From a virus, in IMG/VR virus record IMGVR_UViG_3300046010_005167, positions 1 to 22,186 of that record: a DNA stretch of 22,186 nucleotides; one strand, written 5' to 3'. A model generated the notes under the pieces. That model had not been told where the DNA came from. It searched no databases and was given only the letters and a program-made list of their open reading frames with translations. The position numbers were made by a program, and so were the translations under genes. Below, one piece after another: positions 16,670 through 22,155 of this stretch (its first letter is position 1; every line of letters begins with the position of its first letter).

Positions 16670-17728
16670 ATGAAAATTGCTTTAATAACAGACACTCACT
16701 GGGGTATCCGTGGGGACGTTGTGGCGTTCCACGATTATTTCAAGCGATCTGTTGACGAGTTCTTCCTTCCGGAACTCAGAAAAAGAAATATTAAACAAAT
16801 TGTGCATTTGGGTGACTTGGTTGATCGTCGTAAGTTCATCAACTATATGACCGCCCATAGGTTGCGTAAAGATTTCCTAGAGCCTGTCAACAACGAATTT
16901 CAGTTGGACATTATCATCGGGAATCATGACACTTACTATAAAAACACGAATGAACTAAACGCCTTGCGTGAAATCGTCATGGGTAAGTATAACAACATCA
17001 ACGTTTACAGTAATTCCCATGTGAGAGATTTTGATGGTGTTGAGGTGCTGTATGTTCCGTGGATTTGTGACGATAACTCTAAGCAAACAATCGAAATGAT
17101 TGAAGCAACCAATGCACAGATATGCTTTGGTCACCTCGAACTTACAGGTTTCGAAATGTATAAAGGTCATATGTCCGACCATGGTCATGGGCATGAACTG
17201 TTCGATAAGTTTGACGTTGTTTGCAGTGGTCATTATCATCACAAATCTGATAACAAAAACATCCATTACCTCGGTGCGTTTGCAGAGTTTACATGGACAG
17301 ATTATGACGACCCTAGAGGGTTCCATGTATTCGACACTGAAACCCGTGAACTAGAGTTCATTCAAAATCCTTTCAAAATGTTTTTGAAGATATGGTATGA
17401 CGATATAAACAAAAACATTGACGAAGTAATACTACATAATCACGATGTAAAGGGTAAAATCGTCAAAATCATTGTGAAGAACAAAACAAACCCATATTGG
17501 TTTGACTTGTTCATCGACAAAATTGAAAACAATGCTCCGATGGACATGCAGGTAATTGAAGATAACTTGCAATTAGATTTGGAGAATGATGACGTTGTTA
17601 GTGAAGCAGAAGATACGATTTCTATTTTCAAAAACTACATTGGTCAACTCAATTTAGAGGGAACCAAGAAAGAAAAACTTGAAAAGACAATCGTTGAACT
17701 ATATCAAGAGGCAATCGCTATTCTATGA
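16670..17728 (+). CDS. 47: Recombination nuclease subunit gp47 (Mre11/SbcD family)
   Basis: A 352-aa metallophosphoesterase (T4 gp47: 339 aa). Metal-binding motifs are complete: DTHWG with Asp8 and His10, HLGDLVDRR with Asp49, IGNHDTY with Asn85 and His86, then CFGHLELTG and CSGHYHHKSD. With gp46 it makes the Mre11-Rad50-like complex that resects DNA ends for recombination-dependent replication. AGGAG (16660-16664) lies five bases before the ATG. The stop overlaps the gene 46 start (ATGA), so the two subunits are coupled. It is the first gene behind the promoter at 16616. Confidence 0.97.
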   Translation: MKIALITDTHWGIRGDVVAFHDYFKRSVDEFFLPELRKRNIKQIVHLGDLVDRRKFINYMTAHRLRKDFLEPVNNEFQLDIIIGNHDTYYKNTNELNALREIVMGKYNNINVYSNSHVRDFDGVEVLYVPWICDDNSKQTIEMIEATNAQICFGHLELTGFEMYKGHMSDHGHGHELFDKFDVVCSGHYHHKSDNKNIHYLGAFAEFTWTDYDDPRGFHVFDTETRELEFIQNPFKMFLKIWYDDINKNIDEVILHNHDVKGKIVKIIVKNKTNPYWFDLFIDKIENNAPMDMQVIEDNLQLDLENDDVVSEAEDTISIFKNYIGQLNLEGTKKEKLEKTIVELYQEAIAIL

Positions 17729-19437
17729 TTTTATTCAAAAAAATACGATGGAAGAATCTGTTATCAACAGGTAACATCTTTACTGAACTAGACCTTCTAG
17801 AAAACAAAACAACTCTTATTGTCGGTGAAAACGGCGCAGGTAAATCAACTATTCTTGATGCTCTGTCTTTCGGTTTGTTCAATAAACCTTTTCGGAAGGT
17901 CAATAAACCTCAACTGTTGAACAGCATCACGAAGAAGGATTTGGTTGTCGAGATTGAATTTCAAATCAATCAAAACAACTACAAAGTTGTTCGCGGCATC
18001 AAACCTAACATCTTTGAATTGTATCGTGATGGTAAACTGCTCAATCAAGACGCTGCAGCACGCGACTATCAAGAAGTTCTAGAAAAACAAATTCTGAAAA
18101 TCAACCACAAGTCATTCTGTCAAGTGGTTGTTCTTGGTTCGGCGTCATTTGTTCCGTTCATGCAGTTGCCTGCACAATCACGTAGAGAAATAATTGAGGA
18201 TCTCCTAGACCTTCAAATTTTCACATCTATGAATTTGTTGTTAAAGGAAAAGGTATTGACCAATTCGACCGCAATCAAGGATTGTGAAAGCGACAAAAAG
18301 ATTCTTAAAGCAAAACTTGATTTCTTTCAGAAACATCTTGAAAGTGTGCAGACGAATAATGTTCTGCTGATTGAAGAAAAGCAAAGCAAGATTGATTCTA
18401 CTGGCAAATTAATTGACGATGCAAATGTAGAGATTGATGAAATAATCTCCGCAAGCGATGCATTGAAAGAAAAATTGTCTGATCAACACACAATGAAAGC
18501 AAGGTTGCAAAAACTAGATCAACTGAAAACGCAACTCAAATCAAAGATTGACAATGCGTCAAAAACTATCAACTTCTTCCATGACAATGATAATTGCCCC
18601 ACATGCAAGCAAGGTATTGATCATGACTTTAAAACTGAAACGATCAAAACCAAAAGCACACAAATCACCGAAGTTGAAAATGGGTTGAACAAACTAGAAG
18701 AAGAACGTTTAAAAGTCCTGAACAAATTAGAAGAATACAGTAAGATAAATAATGATCTTCATGACTTGAATTTGAAACTTTCGCAACTAAATACTAAGAT
18801 CTCTGGTTGGAATGATAATATCCGTGAATGGACGAAAGAAATCAAATCAATTCAAGAGAAATCTCAAACATCACAAAACGTCCAAGACATCGAACAAATC
18901 AAAAAAGATTTGAAAGACATTGAAATCAACTTCAATGAACTGCATGATGAAAAGGTTGTATTAGCGACTGCTGCATCAATTCTAAAAGATGGCGGCATCA
19001 AAGCAAAGATAATCAAACAATATATTCCGATCATCAATAAGTTCATTAATAAGTATTTGACTTCGATGGATTTCTTTGTTAACTTCGAATTGAATGAACA
19101 ATTTGACGAAACAATCAAATCTAGATTCCGTGACGAGTTCAGTTATGCATCGTTCTCAGAAGGTGAAAAGATGCGTATCAACCTTGCGATTCTATTTACT
19201 TGGAGAGCAATCTCTAAACTTCGCAATTCGATCAACACGAATCTGCTCATTATGGATGAAGTGTTTGACAGTTCACTTGACAGTAATGGGACCGATGAAT
19301 TTTTCAAGATCCTGCAATCACTAACTGCAGACACTAATACGTTCATCATCAGTCACAAAACTGATCAGTTGTATGACAAGTTTGAGAAAGTCGTTAAGTT
19401 CGAAAAACATAAAAACTTCTCTAAAATGGCAGCGTAA
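17725..19437 (+). CDS. 46: Recombination ATPase subunit gp46 (Rad50/SbcC family)
   Basis: A 570-aa SMC-like ATPase (T4 gp46: 560 aa). It has Walker A GENGAGKST (34-42) and a Q-loop region near SFCQVVVLGS (about 130-139). Two coiled-coil arms (about 175-285 and 305-410) flank a zinc hook CPTC (291-294). The ABC signature FSEGE (477-481), Walker B LLIMDE (507-512) and H-loop His544 follow. Everything needed for ATP-driven clamp action with gp47 is present. The arms are much shorter than in cellular Rad50, as usual in T4-like phages. Gene 47 overlaps its start, and AAGGAG of the next gene begins within its stop region. Confidence 0.97.
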   Translation: MILFKKIRWKNLLSTGNIFTELDLLENKTTLIVGENGAGKSTILDALSFGLFNKPFRKVNKPQLLNSITKKDLVVEIEFQINQNNYKVVRGIKPNIFELYRDGKLLNQDAAARDYQEVLEKQILKINHKSFCQVVVLGSASFVPFMQLPAQSRREIIEDLLDLQIFTSMNLLLKEKVLTNSTAIKDCESDKKILKAKLDFFQKHLESVQTNNVLLIEEKQSKIDSTGKLIDDANVEIDEIISASDALKEKLSDQHTMKARLQKLDQLKTQLKSKIDNASKTINFFHDNDNCPTCKQGIDHDFKTETIKTKSTQITEVENGLNKLEEERLKVLNKLEEYSKINNDLHDLNLKLSQLNTKISGWNDNIREWTKEIKSIQEKSQTSQNVQDIEQIKKDLKDIEINFNELHDEKVVLATAASILKDGGIKAKIIKQYIPIINKFINKYLTSMDFFVNFELNEQFDETIKSRFRDEFSYASFSEGEKMRINLAILFTWRAISKLRNSINTNLLIMDEVFDSSLDSNGTDEFFKILQSLTADTNTFIISHKTDQLYDKFEKVVKFEKHKNFSKMAA

Positions 19438-19447
19438 GGAGTAACCC

Positions 19448-19630
19448 ATGGAATACGGAATAAAACTAGGTGATGGATCTTGGATGCAATTTCTCAGTGA
19501 ATATCACAACAACAAAAAGGCGTTGACTTTCAGATCGCATGAAGAAGCGGAAATATACGCACAGAATATTGAATTGAGAAACTTTGTTATTGAGGCATAT
19601 GATGATTCTAAATCTTCTGCAAGAAAGTGA
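19448..19630 (+). CDS. Small protein of unknown function (60 aa)
   Basis: A 60-aa protein with a good ribosome site, AGGAG six bases before ATG 19448, directly after gene 46. Its N-terminal pattern, YGIKLGDGSWMQFLSEY, then an ALTFRSHEEAEIYAQN helix-like part and NFVIEAYDD, suggests a compact folded domain rather than a random frame. I do not recognise a family. The last 29 bases overlap the likely start of the deformylase-like gene in another frame, which implies coupled translation. It has no membrane segment or cysteine. Confidence 0.62.
   Translation: MEYGIKLGDGSWMQFLSEYHNNKKALTFRSHEEAEIYAQNIELRNFVIEAYDDSKSSARK
19592..19595 (+). promoter_or_regulatory. Ribosome binding site deciding the deformylase-like start
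   Basis: GAGG six bases before ATG 19602 and three bases before ATG 19599. It favours 19602 and excludes the in-frame TTG at 19584. It lies inside the end of the 60-aa gene. Confidence 0.55.
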
Positions 19631-20225
19631 TCCTAGGTTGAAAGAAGGGGCAACGATCAAATTTGACGTTGCCAATCCTCCGATTAATCAAATTGATTGG
19701 AAACCGATTGACCCTGTAAAACTCGCAATTGATCTGACAGAAACAATGCTAAATGGCAATGGTATGGGGTTGTCAGCGCCTCAGGTTGGTATTCCGTTCA
19801 ATGTTTTCGTCATCAAATCAAATCCTGTGATCGCAGTTTTTAATCCTAAAATCGTTGACAAAAGCACAGAACAAATTTATCTTGAAGAAACGTCCTTGAC
19901 AACTCCAGGATTATCTGTTAAAATCAAACGACCTAAGAAAATCAAAGTTCGTTACACTATGCCCAATGGTGAAACAGTGACTGAAATTTATGATGGATTG
20001 ACTTCTCGTATTTTCCAGCATCAAATGGATTATCTTGAAGGTGTGCTGTTTACGCAACGTGCGTCACTTTATCACAGAGAAAAAGCGTTTAAAGATCAGA
20101 AAAAACTTTTAACTTCGCTAAATAAACCGAAACCTCAACTAATACTTAATAACAATGCCCATGTAGGAGGAAAACCATGGCAAGATACGTCTCAACAAAA
20201 ACCTATAAGCAAATTGGTCCTGTAG
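19602..20225 (+). CDS. Peptide deformylase-like protein with degenerate active site
   Basis: A 207-aa protein starting MILNLLQESDPRL, as many deformylases do. Motif 1 is intact: GMGLSAPQ (54-61). Motif 2, normally EGCLS with the metal-ligand Cys, reads ETSLT (96-100), so Ser98 replaces Cys. Motif 3, normally HExDH, reads HQMDY (140-144): the catalytic Glu is Gln and the second metal His is Tyr. Only His140 remains of the metal site. The rest of the fold still looks good (VFNPKIV, RPKKIKVRYT, YLEGVLF), with no stop or frameshift, so it may be a conserved pseudoenzyme rather than a decaying gene. The C-terminal tail past about 165 is unusual, and its last 49 bases overlap queD. ATG 19599 is an alternative start. 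Confidence 0.85.
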   Translation: MILNLLQESDPRLKEGATIKFDVANPPINQIDWKPIDPVKLAIDLTETMLNGNGMGLSAPQVGIPFNVFVIKSNPVIAVFNPKIVDKSTEQIYLEETSLTTPGLSVKIKRPKKIKVRYTMPNGETVTEIYDGLTSRIFQHQMDYLEGVLFTQRASLYHREKAFKDQKKLLTSLNKPKPQLILNNNAHVGGKPWQDTSQQKPISKLVL

Positions 20226-20635
20226 CATACCGCCAATGGCGTGCTGACAGTCATTGTAACCTGATCCACGGTTATGCACTTTCATTCCATTTAGAATTTG
20301 AATCTGATACACTCGATGCCCGCAATTGGGTGGTCGACTTCGGAGGATTGAGACCACTCAAGGGTATGCTTGAAGATTGGTTTGACCATACACTTCTAGT
20401 TGCAGAAGATGATCCAAAGAAAGAAGATTTACTCGAACTAGGCAAGAAAGGTCTTGCGAAAATCACACTAGTTGAAAAGACAGGGTGTGAAGGTATCGCA
20501 GATTTCCTATATGACTACATCAATGAACAGTTCCTTCCCACCTATGGTTGGGGTGGCAGAGTTTGGTGTTGCAAAGTCGAAGTTCGTGAAACTGATGCAA
20601 ATATGGCAATGAGAGTGGGTCACCGCGGTGAGTAA
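20177..20635 (+). CDS. queD: QueD-like 6-carboxytetrahydropterin synthase
   Basis: A 152-aa member of the QueD/PTPS family. Seen: SHCNLIHGY (25-33) with the catalytic Cys27 and His31, FDHTLL with Asp70/His71, CEGIADF with Glu105 and VEVRET with Glu136, all at family positions. Two expected zinc-ligand His are Tyr here: AYR (Tyr18) instead of AHR, and HGY (Tyr33) instead of HGH. This may mark a phage subfamily with another metal site or a different activity. In the known pathway QueD turns the FolE product into 6-carboxytetrahydropterin, which QueE uses. A perfect AGGAGG (20165-20170) lies six bases before the ATG. It overlaps the deformylase-like gene by 49 bases and queE by 8. Confidence 0.85.
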   Translation: MARYVSTKTYKQIGPVAYRQWRADSHCNLIHGYALSFHLEFESDTLDARNWVVDFGGLRPLKGMLEDWFDHTLLVAEDDPKKEDLLELGKKGLAKITLVEKTGCEGIADFLYDYINEQFLPTYGWGGRVWCCKVEVRETDANMAMRVGHRGE

Positions 20636-21476
20636 AATTAAAGTATCGGAGCTATTTTATTCTCTCCAAGGTGAAGGAAAATACATCGGTGTCCCATCAA
20701 TTTTTCTCCGCACTTTCGGATGTAATTTCACATGCGATGGATTTGGAATGCGCCGATTTGAAAAGAGTGTTGAGAGATTCAACGTCAATCCTGACAACTA
20801 CAGCGATTACAAGCAACTACCTCTCGTCAATACAGGATGCGACTCGTATGCATCATGGGACCCGAGATTCAAACACCTTTCCCCTATGCTCACTGTCGAA
20901 GCAATCGTGGACGAAATGCAGCGGTTACTCCCGGACAACAAGTTCGGTCGTGACCAGCACCTCATCATCACTGGCGGCGAACCCCTACTTGGGTGGCAAA
21001 AATCTTTCCCGTCTCTCATTGACGAAATCATCAACCGAAAGATGGGTCTCACTGACATTACCTTTGAAACTAATGGAACCCAGACATTACATTCTGACTT
21101 CCATGAATACTTGACAAACCTTTCAGATCATGTTAAAGTAACATGGTCGGTATCTGCTAAGTTGACAGTTTCTGGTGAAGCATGGAATGAGGCAATCAAA
21201 CCTGCTGTTGTCAGTAACTACATGACTGTCCGCAAAAGCGATACCTATTTGAAATTTGTTGTTGCCAATATTGATGACATTAACGACGTGCATCAGGCAG
21301 TAGCAGAATACAAAGATTACGGTGTCGATGTGCCTGTTTATTTGATGCCTGTTGGCGGAACAAACAACACTTACATTATGAACGAGCGTGCAGTTGCAGA
21401 TTTCTGCAGAGACAATGGATTCAGATTCAGTCCTCGCATTCAAGTGCCGCTCTACAAAAACGCATGGGGAACCTAG
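20628..21476 (+). CDS. queE: QueE-like 7-carboxy-7-deazaguanine synthase (radical SAM)
   Basis: A 282-aa radical SAM protein with a GTG start (20628) inside the end of queD. The N-terminus is typical of QueE: VSELFYSLQGEGKYIGVPSIFLR. The iron-sulfur cluster region reads GCNFTCDGFG, giving Cys32 and Cys36. The third Cys of a CxxxCxxC motif is missing at 39; the next candidate is Cys71 in VNTGCDSYASWD. So the site is split by an insert of about 34 residues. The SAM-binding GGEP motif (ITGGEPLLGWQ, about 113-123) and TFETNGTQ are present. QueE converts 6-carboxytetrahydropterin to 7-carboxy-7-deazaguanine, the precursor of preQ0. The folE start follows the stop by one base. Confidence 0.88.
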   Translation: MSKIKVSELFYSLQGEGKYIGVPSIFLRTFGCNFTCDGFGMRRFEKSVERFNVNPDNYSDYKQLPLVNTGCDSYASWDPRFKHLSPMLTVEAIVDEMQRLLPDNKFGRDQHLIITGGEPLLGWQKSFPSLIDEIINRKMGLTDITFETNGTQTLHSDFHEYLTNLSDHVKVTWSVSAKLTVSGEAWNEAIKPAVVSNYMTVRKSDTYLKFVVANIDDINDVHQAVAEYKDYGVDVPVYLMPVGGTNNTYIMNERAVADFCRDNGFRFSPRIQVPLYKNAWGT

Positions 21477-21477
21477 A

Positions 21478-22155
21478 ATGATTTCTAAAGTTATCAAAGA
21501 TCGTATCGAAACTTCTGGCGGACGCTACTTTGCGTCTGACAACATTTCACAGTATATTAATCCAGAAGAACATGATATGTTGATCGCGGAGTTGACTGAT
21601 AAGTTCAATAGTGTTCTGGATTCATTGATTATTGATCGTGCAAAGGATCCGAACTCACAAGGGACCGGTAAACGTCTAGCAAAGATGTATGTCAACGAAA
21701 TCATGGCGGGTCGATATGAACCGCAACCTGATGTTGCAGCATTTCCTAACGATGGTTACAACAAATATACAGGTATGCTTGTTGTTCGTTCTGAAATTAA
21801 ATCTCTTTGTTCACATCATCACCAACCTGTCAAGGGTGTTGCATATATCGGAGTCATTCCAGGTGAAAAAGTCATCGGTTTGTCTAAATACAGTAGAATC
21901 GCACAATGGTGTGCAAGACGAGGAACCTTGCAGGAAGAACTGTGCAACGAAGTCGCCAACCAAATTCGTAAAGCAACTAGCAGTGATGACATTGGTGTTT
22001 ATATCGCTGCTACTCATGGATGCTGCGAAAATCGCGGTATTATGGCACACTCTTCATTGACGCAAACGACTGTATTACATGGTGCGTTCCATCAACCTGA
22101 TGTGAAAAAAGAATTCTTCGATTCTATAAAACTACAAGAAATGCATATCAAGTAA
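21478..22155 (+). CDS. folE: GTP cyclohydrolase I (FolE)
   Basis: A 225-aa enzyme starting MISKVIKDRIETSGG; an in-frame extension into queE is rejected because this ATG directly follows the queE stop. The type I cyclohydrolase core is clear: MLVVRSEIKSLCSHHHQPVK (100-119), GEKVIGLSKYSRI (129-141), LQEELCNEV (151-159) and ATHGCCENRGI (178-188). Zinc ligands Cys111, His114 (or 113) and Cys182 are present. The usual CEHH reads CSHH, a Glu-to-Ser change. The enzyme opens GTP to dihydroneopterin triphosphate, the first step for QueD and QueE, so the three genes form one pathway. The remaining 31 bases of the window contain no recognisable feature. Confidence 0.92.
   Translation: MISKVIKDRIETSGGRYFASDNISQYINPEEHDMLIAELTDKFNSVLDSLIIDRAKDPNSQGTGKRLAKMYVNEIMAGRYEPQPDVAAFPNDGYNKYTGMLVVRSEIKSLCSHHHQPVKGVAYIGVIPGEKVIGLSKYSRIAQWCARRGTLQEELCNEVANQIRKATSSDDIGVYIAATHGCCENRGIMAHSSLTQTTVLHGAFHQPDVKKEFFDSIKLQEMHIK

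What the first reader, a model, noticed from the sequence alone, without database searches (positions are those of the whole stretch)
19602..20225. Deformylase homologue with a dismantled metal site but an intact frame
Peptide deformylases bind metal through Cys of EGCLS and the two His of HExDH, with Glu as catalyst. Here these read ETSLT (Ser98) and HQMDY (Gln141, Tyr144). Each change needs only one base (TCC at 19893, CAA at 20022, TAT at 20031). Motif 1 and the fold pattern are kept, and the gene has no stop or frameshift. Loss of three of four key residues with fold conservation suggests a pseudoenzyme, perhaps binding nascent N-termini, the ribosome or the host deformylase.
Basis: partly seen in the sequence, partly recalled or inferred. 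Interest (0 to 1): 0.75.

Follow-up and report, generated by a model that had tools for sequence, protein, structure and literature searches.

The report
Phage deformylase with dead active site
A T4-like bacterial virus carries a protein that folds like peptide deformylase, the enzyme that trims the start of new bacterial proteins, but it has lost residues that hold its metal and do the chemistry, and related viruses have lost them several times while keeping the rest of the protein.

Summary
Window 19602-20225 encodes a 207-residue peptide deformylase (PDF) homologue with Cys98->Ser, Glu141->Gln and His144->Tyr, plus Gly97->Thr in motif II. It is no assembly error: two further contigs carry the identical gene. 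It is not random decay: 2 of 27 other conserved positions differ, close to intact relatives (mean 1.0-1.5). AlphaFold gives a confident PDF fold (pLDDT 91.9).

The window is not alone. Of 203 distinct phage PDFs collected, 19 lack at least one of five key residues; of 50 found through the neighbour gene gp46, 8 do. A tree blind to those residues needs 10 changes, 3 forced by strongly supported branches. Most measurable pairs inside broken clades show purifying selection (dN/dS 0.04-0.09, one 0.26). No second PDF lies on 28 contigs with a broken gene, all fragments. All 19 keep a basic C-terminal segment.

Best reading: a non-catalytic PDF kept for binding, perhaps at the ribosome exit. The pseudoenzyme part is well supported; the binding role is inferred. 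Inactive 'type 3' PDFs are known in cells: a new variant of a known kind.

The parts
19602..20225 (+). pseudo-peptide-deformylase gene, 207 aa (ATG at 19602; an ATG also lies at 19599)
19683..19706 (+). about 8-residue insertion (INQIDWKP) absent from the six relatives aligned
19761..19784 (+). motif I GMGLSAPQ, intact (Gln61 kept)
19884..19901 (+). motif II EETSLT: Gly97->Thr, metal ligand Cys98->Ser
20013..20042 (+). motif III FQHQMDYLEG: catalytic Glu141->Gln, metal ligand His144->Tyr, His140 kept
20067..20123 (+). basic C-terminal helix, residues 156-174 in the model; the basic segment is kept in the 19 broken and 155 intact phage sequences measured
20124..20225 (+). C-terminal tail, low confidence from residue 181 (pLDDT 63-66), its end overlapping queD by 49 bases
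16670..17728 (+). gp47-like nuclease (calcineurin-like phosphoesterase), syntenic neighbour
17725..19437 (+). gp46-like SMC/AAA protein, syntenic neighbour
19448..19630 (+). 60-aa ORF between gp46 and the PDF, matched in L026, L015, L118 and L119
20177..20635 (+). QueD-like gene (PTPS family)
20628..21476 (+). QueE-like radical SAM gene (Pfam Radical_SAM 28.2 bits, just under its cut-off of 29.5)
21478..22155 (+). FolE-like GTP cyclohydrolase I gene

Best explanation
The gene is the phage's ordinary gp46-adjacent peptide deformylase turned pseudoenzyme. Shown by sequence: it has the PDF fold signature and genomic place, but lacks two of three metal ligands and the catalytic glutamate. Inferred: it cannot bind the catalytic metal and does not deformylate. 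Shown for sister lineages: such dead PDFs persist under purifying selection. Inferred, most likely mechanism (about 0.3 on its own): the kept basic C-terminal helix docks the protein beside the ribosome exit tunnel, where it holds or shields formyl-Met nascent ends, or blocks the host's deformylase, during infection. The pseudoenzyme part on its own stands at about 0.85.
For: Metal and catalytic residues replaced. 4 of 6 catalytic-site positions but only 2 of 27 other conserved positions differ; intact relatives average 1.5 (155 sequences, weighted), or 1.0 in the 122 with over 42% identity to the window. AlphaFold model pLDDT 91.9, pTM 0.81, VIA Z 24.4 to 1lme and 24.0 to the phage S-SSM7 PDF 3uwa. 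19 of 203 distinct phage PDFs broken; 8 of 50 in the gp46-seeded set. Trait-masked tree: 10 changes, 3 forced by starred branches. Ser98 is TCC in the window and L235 but AGC/AGT in L061, L042, L098, L021, L253 and L288, so there were separate origins. NG86 dN/dS inside broken clades: L061-L096 0.049, L098-L099 0.067, L192-L193 0.089; L257-L267 0.085. Same place after gp46 as in intact orthologues (35 of 38 loci compared have a gp46 match upstream). Basic C-terminal segment kept in 19 of 19 broken (net charge +4 to +9; 155 intact, median +7); in E. coli PDF this region's helix binds the ribosome (PMC5591237, section 3).
Against: No assay. The window gene has no diverged close copy, so selection on it after the loss is not measured; pairs with L026, L015 and L119 have saturated dS (NG86 dN/dS 0.15-0.29 against 0.078 for intact L119-L015). 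The PDF has drifted faster than its neighbours in this lineage: WIN-L026 gp46 79% but PDF 57%; L119-L015 gp46 77%, PDF 82%. That fits relaxed constraint as well as a new role. Some other broken proteins also differ at more of the 27 other conserved positions than intact ones usually do (clade A 4-5, L253 4, L288 6; intact 95% quantile 4). The basic segment is equally present in intact PDFs, so it does not single out a ribosome role, and the same paper says the E. coli helix can be removed without loss of activity (section 10). T. brucei type 3 PDFs with altered motifs are reported active (PMC12690207, passages).
Confidence: 0.4

Rival explanations
1. Slow decay. The phage no longer needs a deformylase, the active site eroded first, and the gene will be lost; the frame stays open because the gene overlaps and may be translationally coupled to queD.
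For: Faster drift of PDF than of neighbours in the window lineage (WIN-L026 gp46 79%, PDF 57%). WIN and L026 share Glu->Gln but lost different ligands, as erosion after one key hit would give. A 49-base overlap with queD. In several broken proteins further conserved positions changed too.
Against: In the window gene losses are concentrated in the active site. Broken clades A, B (L192/L193) and D diversified after the loss with NG86 dN/dS 0.04-0.09 in most measurable pairs, one pair 0.26. In clade A faster drift than neighbours is not clear: gp46 68-82% with PDF 76-86%, and its intact sisters show PDF no better conserved than gp46 (88-93% against 90-93%). No broken copy with a stop or frameshift turned up, though the search favours open frames.
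Confidence: 0.25
2. Partner subunit. The dead PDF pairs with an active PDF (host's or the phage's own) and modulates its activity or substrate choice.
For: Two alphaproteobacterial genomes encode one protein with an N-terminal dead PDF domain (ASIS, HQ[MI]DY: the same Cys->Ser, Glu->Gln, His->Tyr, with Gln->Met in motif I) fused to an intact PDF domain, and these are the only two PDF matches in each genome.
Against: No second PDF on 28 contigs with a broken gene, all fragments. The fusion's domain arrangement could not be modelled (pTM 0.47, 10 sequences). PDFs are mostly described as monomers (recalled).
Confidence: 0.15
3. Altered enzyme. Ser98, His140, Gln141 and Tyr144 make a different metal site or a metal-free site that still works on formyl-Met or another acyl group.
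For: Recurrence of Ser98 with Tyr144 in separate lineages (window; clade A) and of Ser/Tyr with Glu mostly kept in an alphaproteobacterial paralogue family. Gln61, Glu96 and Arg110 are kept in the window protein.
Against: Other lineages broke the site in unlike ways (QSQGQ, QSQQF, QCHSY), which suits loss better than one new chemistry. Clade A puts Phe/Tyr at the Gly54 position, which could crowd the pocket.
Confidence: 0.12

Closest known systems
Phage and bacterial peptide deformylase (PF01327, PHROG 2890)
   Same: fold, motif I, place after gp46/gp47 in T4-like phages
   Different: two metal ligands and the catalytic Glu replaced; 100.8 bits, just under the TIGR00079 cut-off of 103.95
Type 3 PDFs (archaea, trypanosomatids, some bacteria such as S. 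aureus and S. pneumoniae second PDFs)
   Same: PDF homologues with substituted motifs, reported weakly active or inactive (PMC5591237 section 3; PMC12690207 passages)
   Different: here it is viral and nested among intact phage PDFs; no type 3 sequence was put in the tree
Type 4 marine phage PDFs such as S-SSM7 (3uwa)
   Same: virus-borne PDF fold, Z 24.0
   Different: those reported keep all motifs and have short C-termini (PMC5591237 section 10); this one keeps a C-terminal helix and lost the site
Alphaproteobacterial paralogue with GANM-like / xSLS / HExDY motifs (seen here, unnamed family)
   Same: Cys->Ser and His->Tyr at the same positions
   Different: Gln->Met in motif I, Glu mostly kept, and in the Rickettsiales-order copies a His/Cys-rich tail; bacterial; the phage protein keeps Gln61 and lacks that tail

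Membership tests
Peptide deformylase homologue (Pfam PF01327) | score over the curated cut-off | tested here: met
   107.4 bits against 22.8
Peptide deformylase homologue (Pfam PF01327) | PDF fold | tested here: met
   model pLDDT 91.9; best Z 24.4, 145 residues, 1.4 A to 1lme
Active peptide deformylase | motif I (G-Phi-G-Phi-x-A-x-Q) | tested here: met
   GMGLSAPQ
Active peptide deformylase | motif II EGCxS with metal-binding Cys | tested here: not met
   ETSLT
Active peptide deformylase | motif III HExDH with catalytic Glu and two His | tested here: not met
   HQMDY
Active peptide deformylase | NCBIfam equivalog TIGR00079 cut-off | tested here: not met
   100.8 against 103.95 bits
Active peptide deformylase | bound metal and deformylase activity | not testable with these tools
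   needs protein
Type 3 PDF | substitutions in conserved motifs | tested here: met
   motifs II and III
Type 3 PDF | clusters with archaeal/trypanosomatid type 3 sequences | not tested
   no type 3 reference in the trees; the window groups with phage PDFs L015, L119 and L026 (support 90)
Type 4 viral PDF | short C-terminus without the third helix | tested here: not met
   helix 156-174 in the model
Pseudoenzyme kept by selection | purifying selection after loss of catalysis | tested here: inconclusive
   met for sister broken clades A, B (L192/L193, 4 differences) and D; the window lineage has no close diverged copy

The most novel reading that the evidence does not exclude
T4-like phages repeatedly turn their deformylase into a ribosome-docked decoy that keeps the start of new proteins formylated or displaces the host deformylase. 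Phages and alphaproteobacteria converged on the same Ser/Tyr dead site, so dead deformylases would be a general regulatory part of N-terminal processing.
Probability: 0.2. Interest if true: 0.82.

Novelty: new variant of a known kind. Interest (0 to 1): 0.62.

Why it matters
Why phages carry deformylases is an open question, and a 2017 study reports strict conservation of the motifs in viral PDFs and notes the suggestion that all putative phage PDFs may be active (PMC5591237, sections 3 and 10). A recurrent, selected loss of the active site would show that part of what these proteins do needs no catalysis, and it gives matched intact/dead pairs in the same genomic place to test that. It also warns against counting every phage 'peptide deformylase' as an active auxiliary gene.

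Tried and rejected
Sequencing or assembly error: rejected; identical gene in L001 and L002, and other broken genes recur on separate contigs (L257=L258, L267=L268, L253=L254=L255 over the domain compared; L020, L021 and L121-L123 the same protein).

Window gene as a singleton oddity: rejected by the census. L089 (only His->Phe) and L032 (Cys, both His and Glu kept; Gln61->His and Asp143->Gly) are weak members of the 19; without them 17 remain. Sequences under 125 aa or cut off before a motif were dropped before the count of 203.

Pooled hypergeometric p: computed but not used as proof, because broken genes were selected for catalytic changes; the informative figure is the low number of other changes in the window gene. 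The 33 conserved columns were themselves defined on the intact sequences, which favours the intact set.

dN/dS by ML or YN00: unstable at saturated dS; one ML pair gave 0.795 (L061-L042, where NG86 dS was undefined) and YN00 failed for many pairs. I rely on unsaturated pairs and on L061-L096 (NG86 dS 1.5).

One search found L182, L192 and L193 by their motif, so they are not part of an unbiased rate; the 8 of 50 (seeded by the window's own gp46, window included) is the least biased. Three further gp46-set sequences were dropped as cut off before the motifs, and 8 of the 80 gp46 loci held no PDF match.

The idea that every broken PDF drifts faster than its neighbours: not borne out in clade A. 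Fusion-protein structure: low confidence (pTM 0.47), not used. Records at least 90% complete with a broken PDF: none among those searched. Literature: the listings (open-licence library only) and the passages and sections read of two papers show no dead phage PDF; other papers were seen as listings only.

Full report
WHAT IS THERE. The window is a 22,186-base virus record with T4-like genes: UvsY, UvsW, a weakly matched sigma-like protein, gp47, gp46, then a 60-aa ORF, the PDF homologue, QueD, QueE and FolE. The PDF gene, 19602-20225, is open over 207 codons. It matches PF01327 at E 6.9e-31 and solved PDFs at E down to 2.1e-22. Against them, motif II reads ETSLT and motif III HQMDY: the metal ligand Cys is Ser98 (TCC), the catalytic Glu is Gln141 (CAA), the second metal His is Tyr144 (TAT), and Gly97 is Thr (ACG). 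Motif I, the first His, Glu96 and Arg110 are kept. The gene is identical in two other contigs.

FOLD. AlphaFold with an alignment of 91 sequences, the window included, gives pLDDT 91.9 and pTM 0.81. The 50 best solved matches shown are PDFs by title: Z 24.4 to T. maritima 1lme, 24.0 to phage S-SSM7 3uwa. A helix at 156-174 follows the core; the last 27 residues are low-confidence, and the end of the gene overlaps queD by 49 bases.

IS IT RANDOM DECAY? Among 155 intact phage PDFs, 33 columns are at least 85% conserved: six in the catalytic site (Gln, Gly, Cys, His, Glu, His) and 27 others. The window differs at 4 of 6 and at 2 of 27; intact sequences differ at 1.5 of 27 on average (weighted), or 1.0 for the 122 with over 42% identity to the window. 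So in the window gene the loss is concentrated in the active site. Several other broken proteins differ at more of the 27 (clade A 4-5, L253 4, L288 6), some of these changes lying in or beside the motifs (Gly54, Gly56, Leu99, Pro102).

HOW COMMON. Five PDF-seeded viral scans, one motif-pattern scan, one scan seeded only by the neighbour gp46 and three isolate phages gave 203 distinct phage PDF domains; 184 keep Gln/Cys/His/Glu/His and 19 do not. In the gp46-seeded set 50 distinct sequences reach through the motifs and 8 are broken (window included; 3 cut-off sequences dropped). Patterns, in the order Gln61, Cys98, His140, Glu141, His144: QSHQY (window, L061, L096), QSHHY (L042, L098, L099), QCHQY (L182, L192, L193), QCHSY (L257, L279, L267), QSQQH (L235), QCQQH (L026), QSQQF (L253), QSQGQ (L288), HSQEH (L021), HCHEH (L032), QCHEF (L089). 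Clade A below means L061, L096, L042, L098, L099; clade B L192, L193; clade D L257, L279, L267.

HOW OFTEN LOST. A tree of 174 sequences (before) with the six motif positions blanked needs 10 changes of state for the 19 broken rows; strongly supported branches alone force 3. The closest intact kin of clade A (L055, L101, L103) keep Cys/His/Glu/His with motif II already EMCM, so Gly97 went first there. Ser98 is TCC in the window and L235 but AGC/AGT in the six other Ser98 genes sampled, so at least two, probably more, origins.

PLACE. In 35 of 38 loci compared, broken and intact, a gp46 match lies upstream of the PDF, usually adjacent or within about 1.2 kb (4.4 kb in L007); the other three stretches show no gp46 (L192, L059, L089). 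So the broken gene is the orthologue, not an extra copy. PF01327 found exactly one match in each of 38 records searched, 28 of them with a broken gene, the longest 98,764 bases; none is complete, so an unlinked second PDF is not excluded.

SELECTION. Within broken clades, NG86 dN/dS: clade A 0.037-0.068 in the six pairs where dS is defined (L061-L096 0.049 at dS 1.5; four pairs undefined), L192-L193 0.089 (4 base differences only), and L021-L032 0.145, a pair whose split predates part of the loss; clade D L257-L267 0.085, L279-L267 0.077, L257-L279 0.262. Intact pairs: 0.041-0.060 for L055/L101/L103, 0.046 for L074-L111, 0.064-0.089 for L071/L107/L108. Clades A, B and D share their losses, so these figures measure selection on the dead protein. 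Against this, in the window lineage the PDF has drifted faster than its neighbours (WIN-L026 gp46 79%, queE 83%, PDF 57%; intact L119-L015 gp46 77%, queE 86%, PDF 82%); in clade A such a contrast is not clear. The window has no close diverged copy, so selection on the window gene itself is inferred from site pattern only.

MECHANISM. All 19 broken proteins keep a basic C-terminal segment (net +4 to +9; 155 intact, median +7); it is helical in the window's model, the only one made for a phage protein. In E. coli PDF this helix binds the ribosome by the exit tunnel, and earlier viral PDFs were described as lacking it (PMC5591237, section 3); the same paper also cites that the helix can be removed without loss of activity (section 10). 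My best guess is a ribosome-docked, non-catalytic PDF that shields formyl-Met ends or displaces the host enzyme. Each of those steps is inference. Rivals: slow decay, partner subunit, altered enzyme.

BACTERIAL PARALLELS. A motif scan of bacterial genomes (91 stretches) held two with a PDF match, both alphaproteobacterial: one ORF with a dead N-terminal PDF domain (ASIS, HQ[MI]DY) fused to an intact one, and these are the only PDF matches in each genome. Searching the same order then showed a standalone paralogue with GANM-like, xSLS-like and mostly HExDY motifs and a His/Cys-rich tail; among 30 loci fetched from the class, 6 are of this kind (L419-L423, L425) and 24 have intact motifs. I found no description of it in the listings.

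AGAINST KNOWN KINDS. It is a PDF homologue by family and fold, but fails the defining motifs II and III of an active PDF. It resembles type 3 PDFs in kind (PMC5591237 section 3, PMC12690207 passages), but sits among phage PDFs in the tree. Phage PDFs were reported to conserve the motifs (PMC5591237 section 10). Hence: new variant of a known kind.

Noticed in passing
L328 6824-7819 (+); L345 2655-3653 (-): Alphaproteobacterial proteins of ~333 aa: dead PDF domain (HQ[MI]DY, ASIS) fused to an intact PDF domain, the only PDF matches in each genome.
   Followed up: partly
L390-L403, L405, L407-L410, L412, L414, L417, L418; L419-L423, L425: Alphaproteobacterial PDF paralogue (first group from the order of the L328 genome, titled Rickettsiales) with GANM-like motif I, Cys->Ser, His->Tyr and Glu mostly kept (Lys in L391, L412); copies of the first group end in a tail like PPHxHxxxCxH. 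By hand count at least 39 of 174 genomes of the order have a QHxxDY-type motif inside a listed PDF match. The L402 copy is interrupted by one stop.
   Followed up: partly
window 20177-20635: The QueD-like protein reads HGY where canonical QueD has HGH (recalled); all 37 other phage homologues compared read HGY too, so this is a conserved phage subfamily, perhaps with an altered zinc site.
   Followed up: partly
window 20177-20225: The PDF reading frame runs 49 bases into queD, and an AGGAGG just before queD lies inside PDF codons; in L026 the PDF frame ends before queD.
   Followed up: no
window 19448-19630: A 60-aa ORF between gp46 and PDF is matched at 40-50% in L026, L015, L118 and L119; no Pfam match.
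   Followed up: no
L015, L118, L119 against window queD: queD is only 45-46% identical to the window's although gp46 is 71-73%, while L026 queD is 86%: the queD gene looks exchanged between phages.
   Followed up: no
L035, L055, L101, L103, L071, L107, L108: Phage PDFs with intact Gln/Cys/His/Glu/His but the motif II Gly replaced by Arg, Met or Val; they sit next to broken clade A and may be intermediates.
   Followed up: partly
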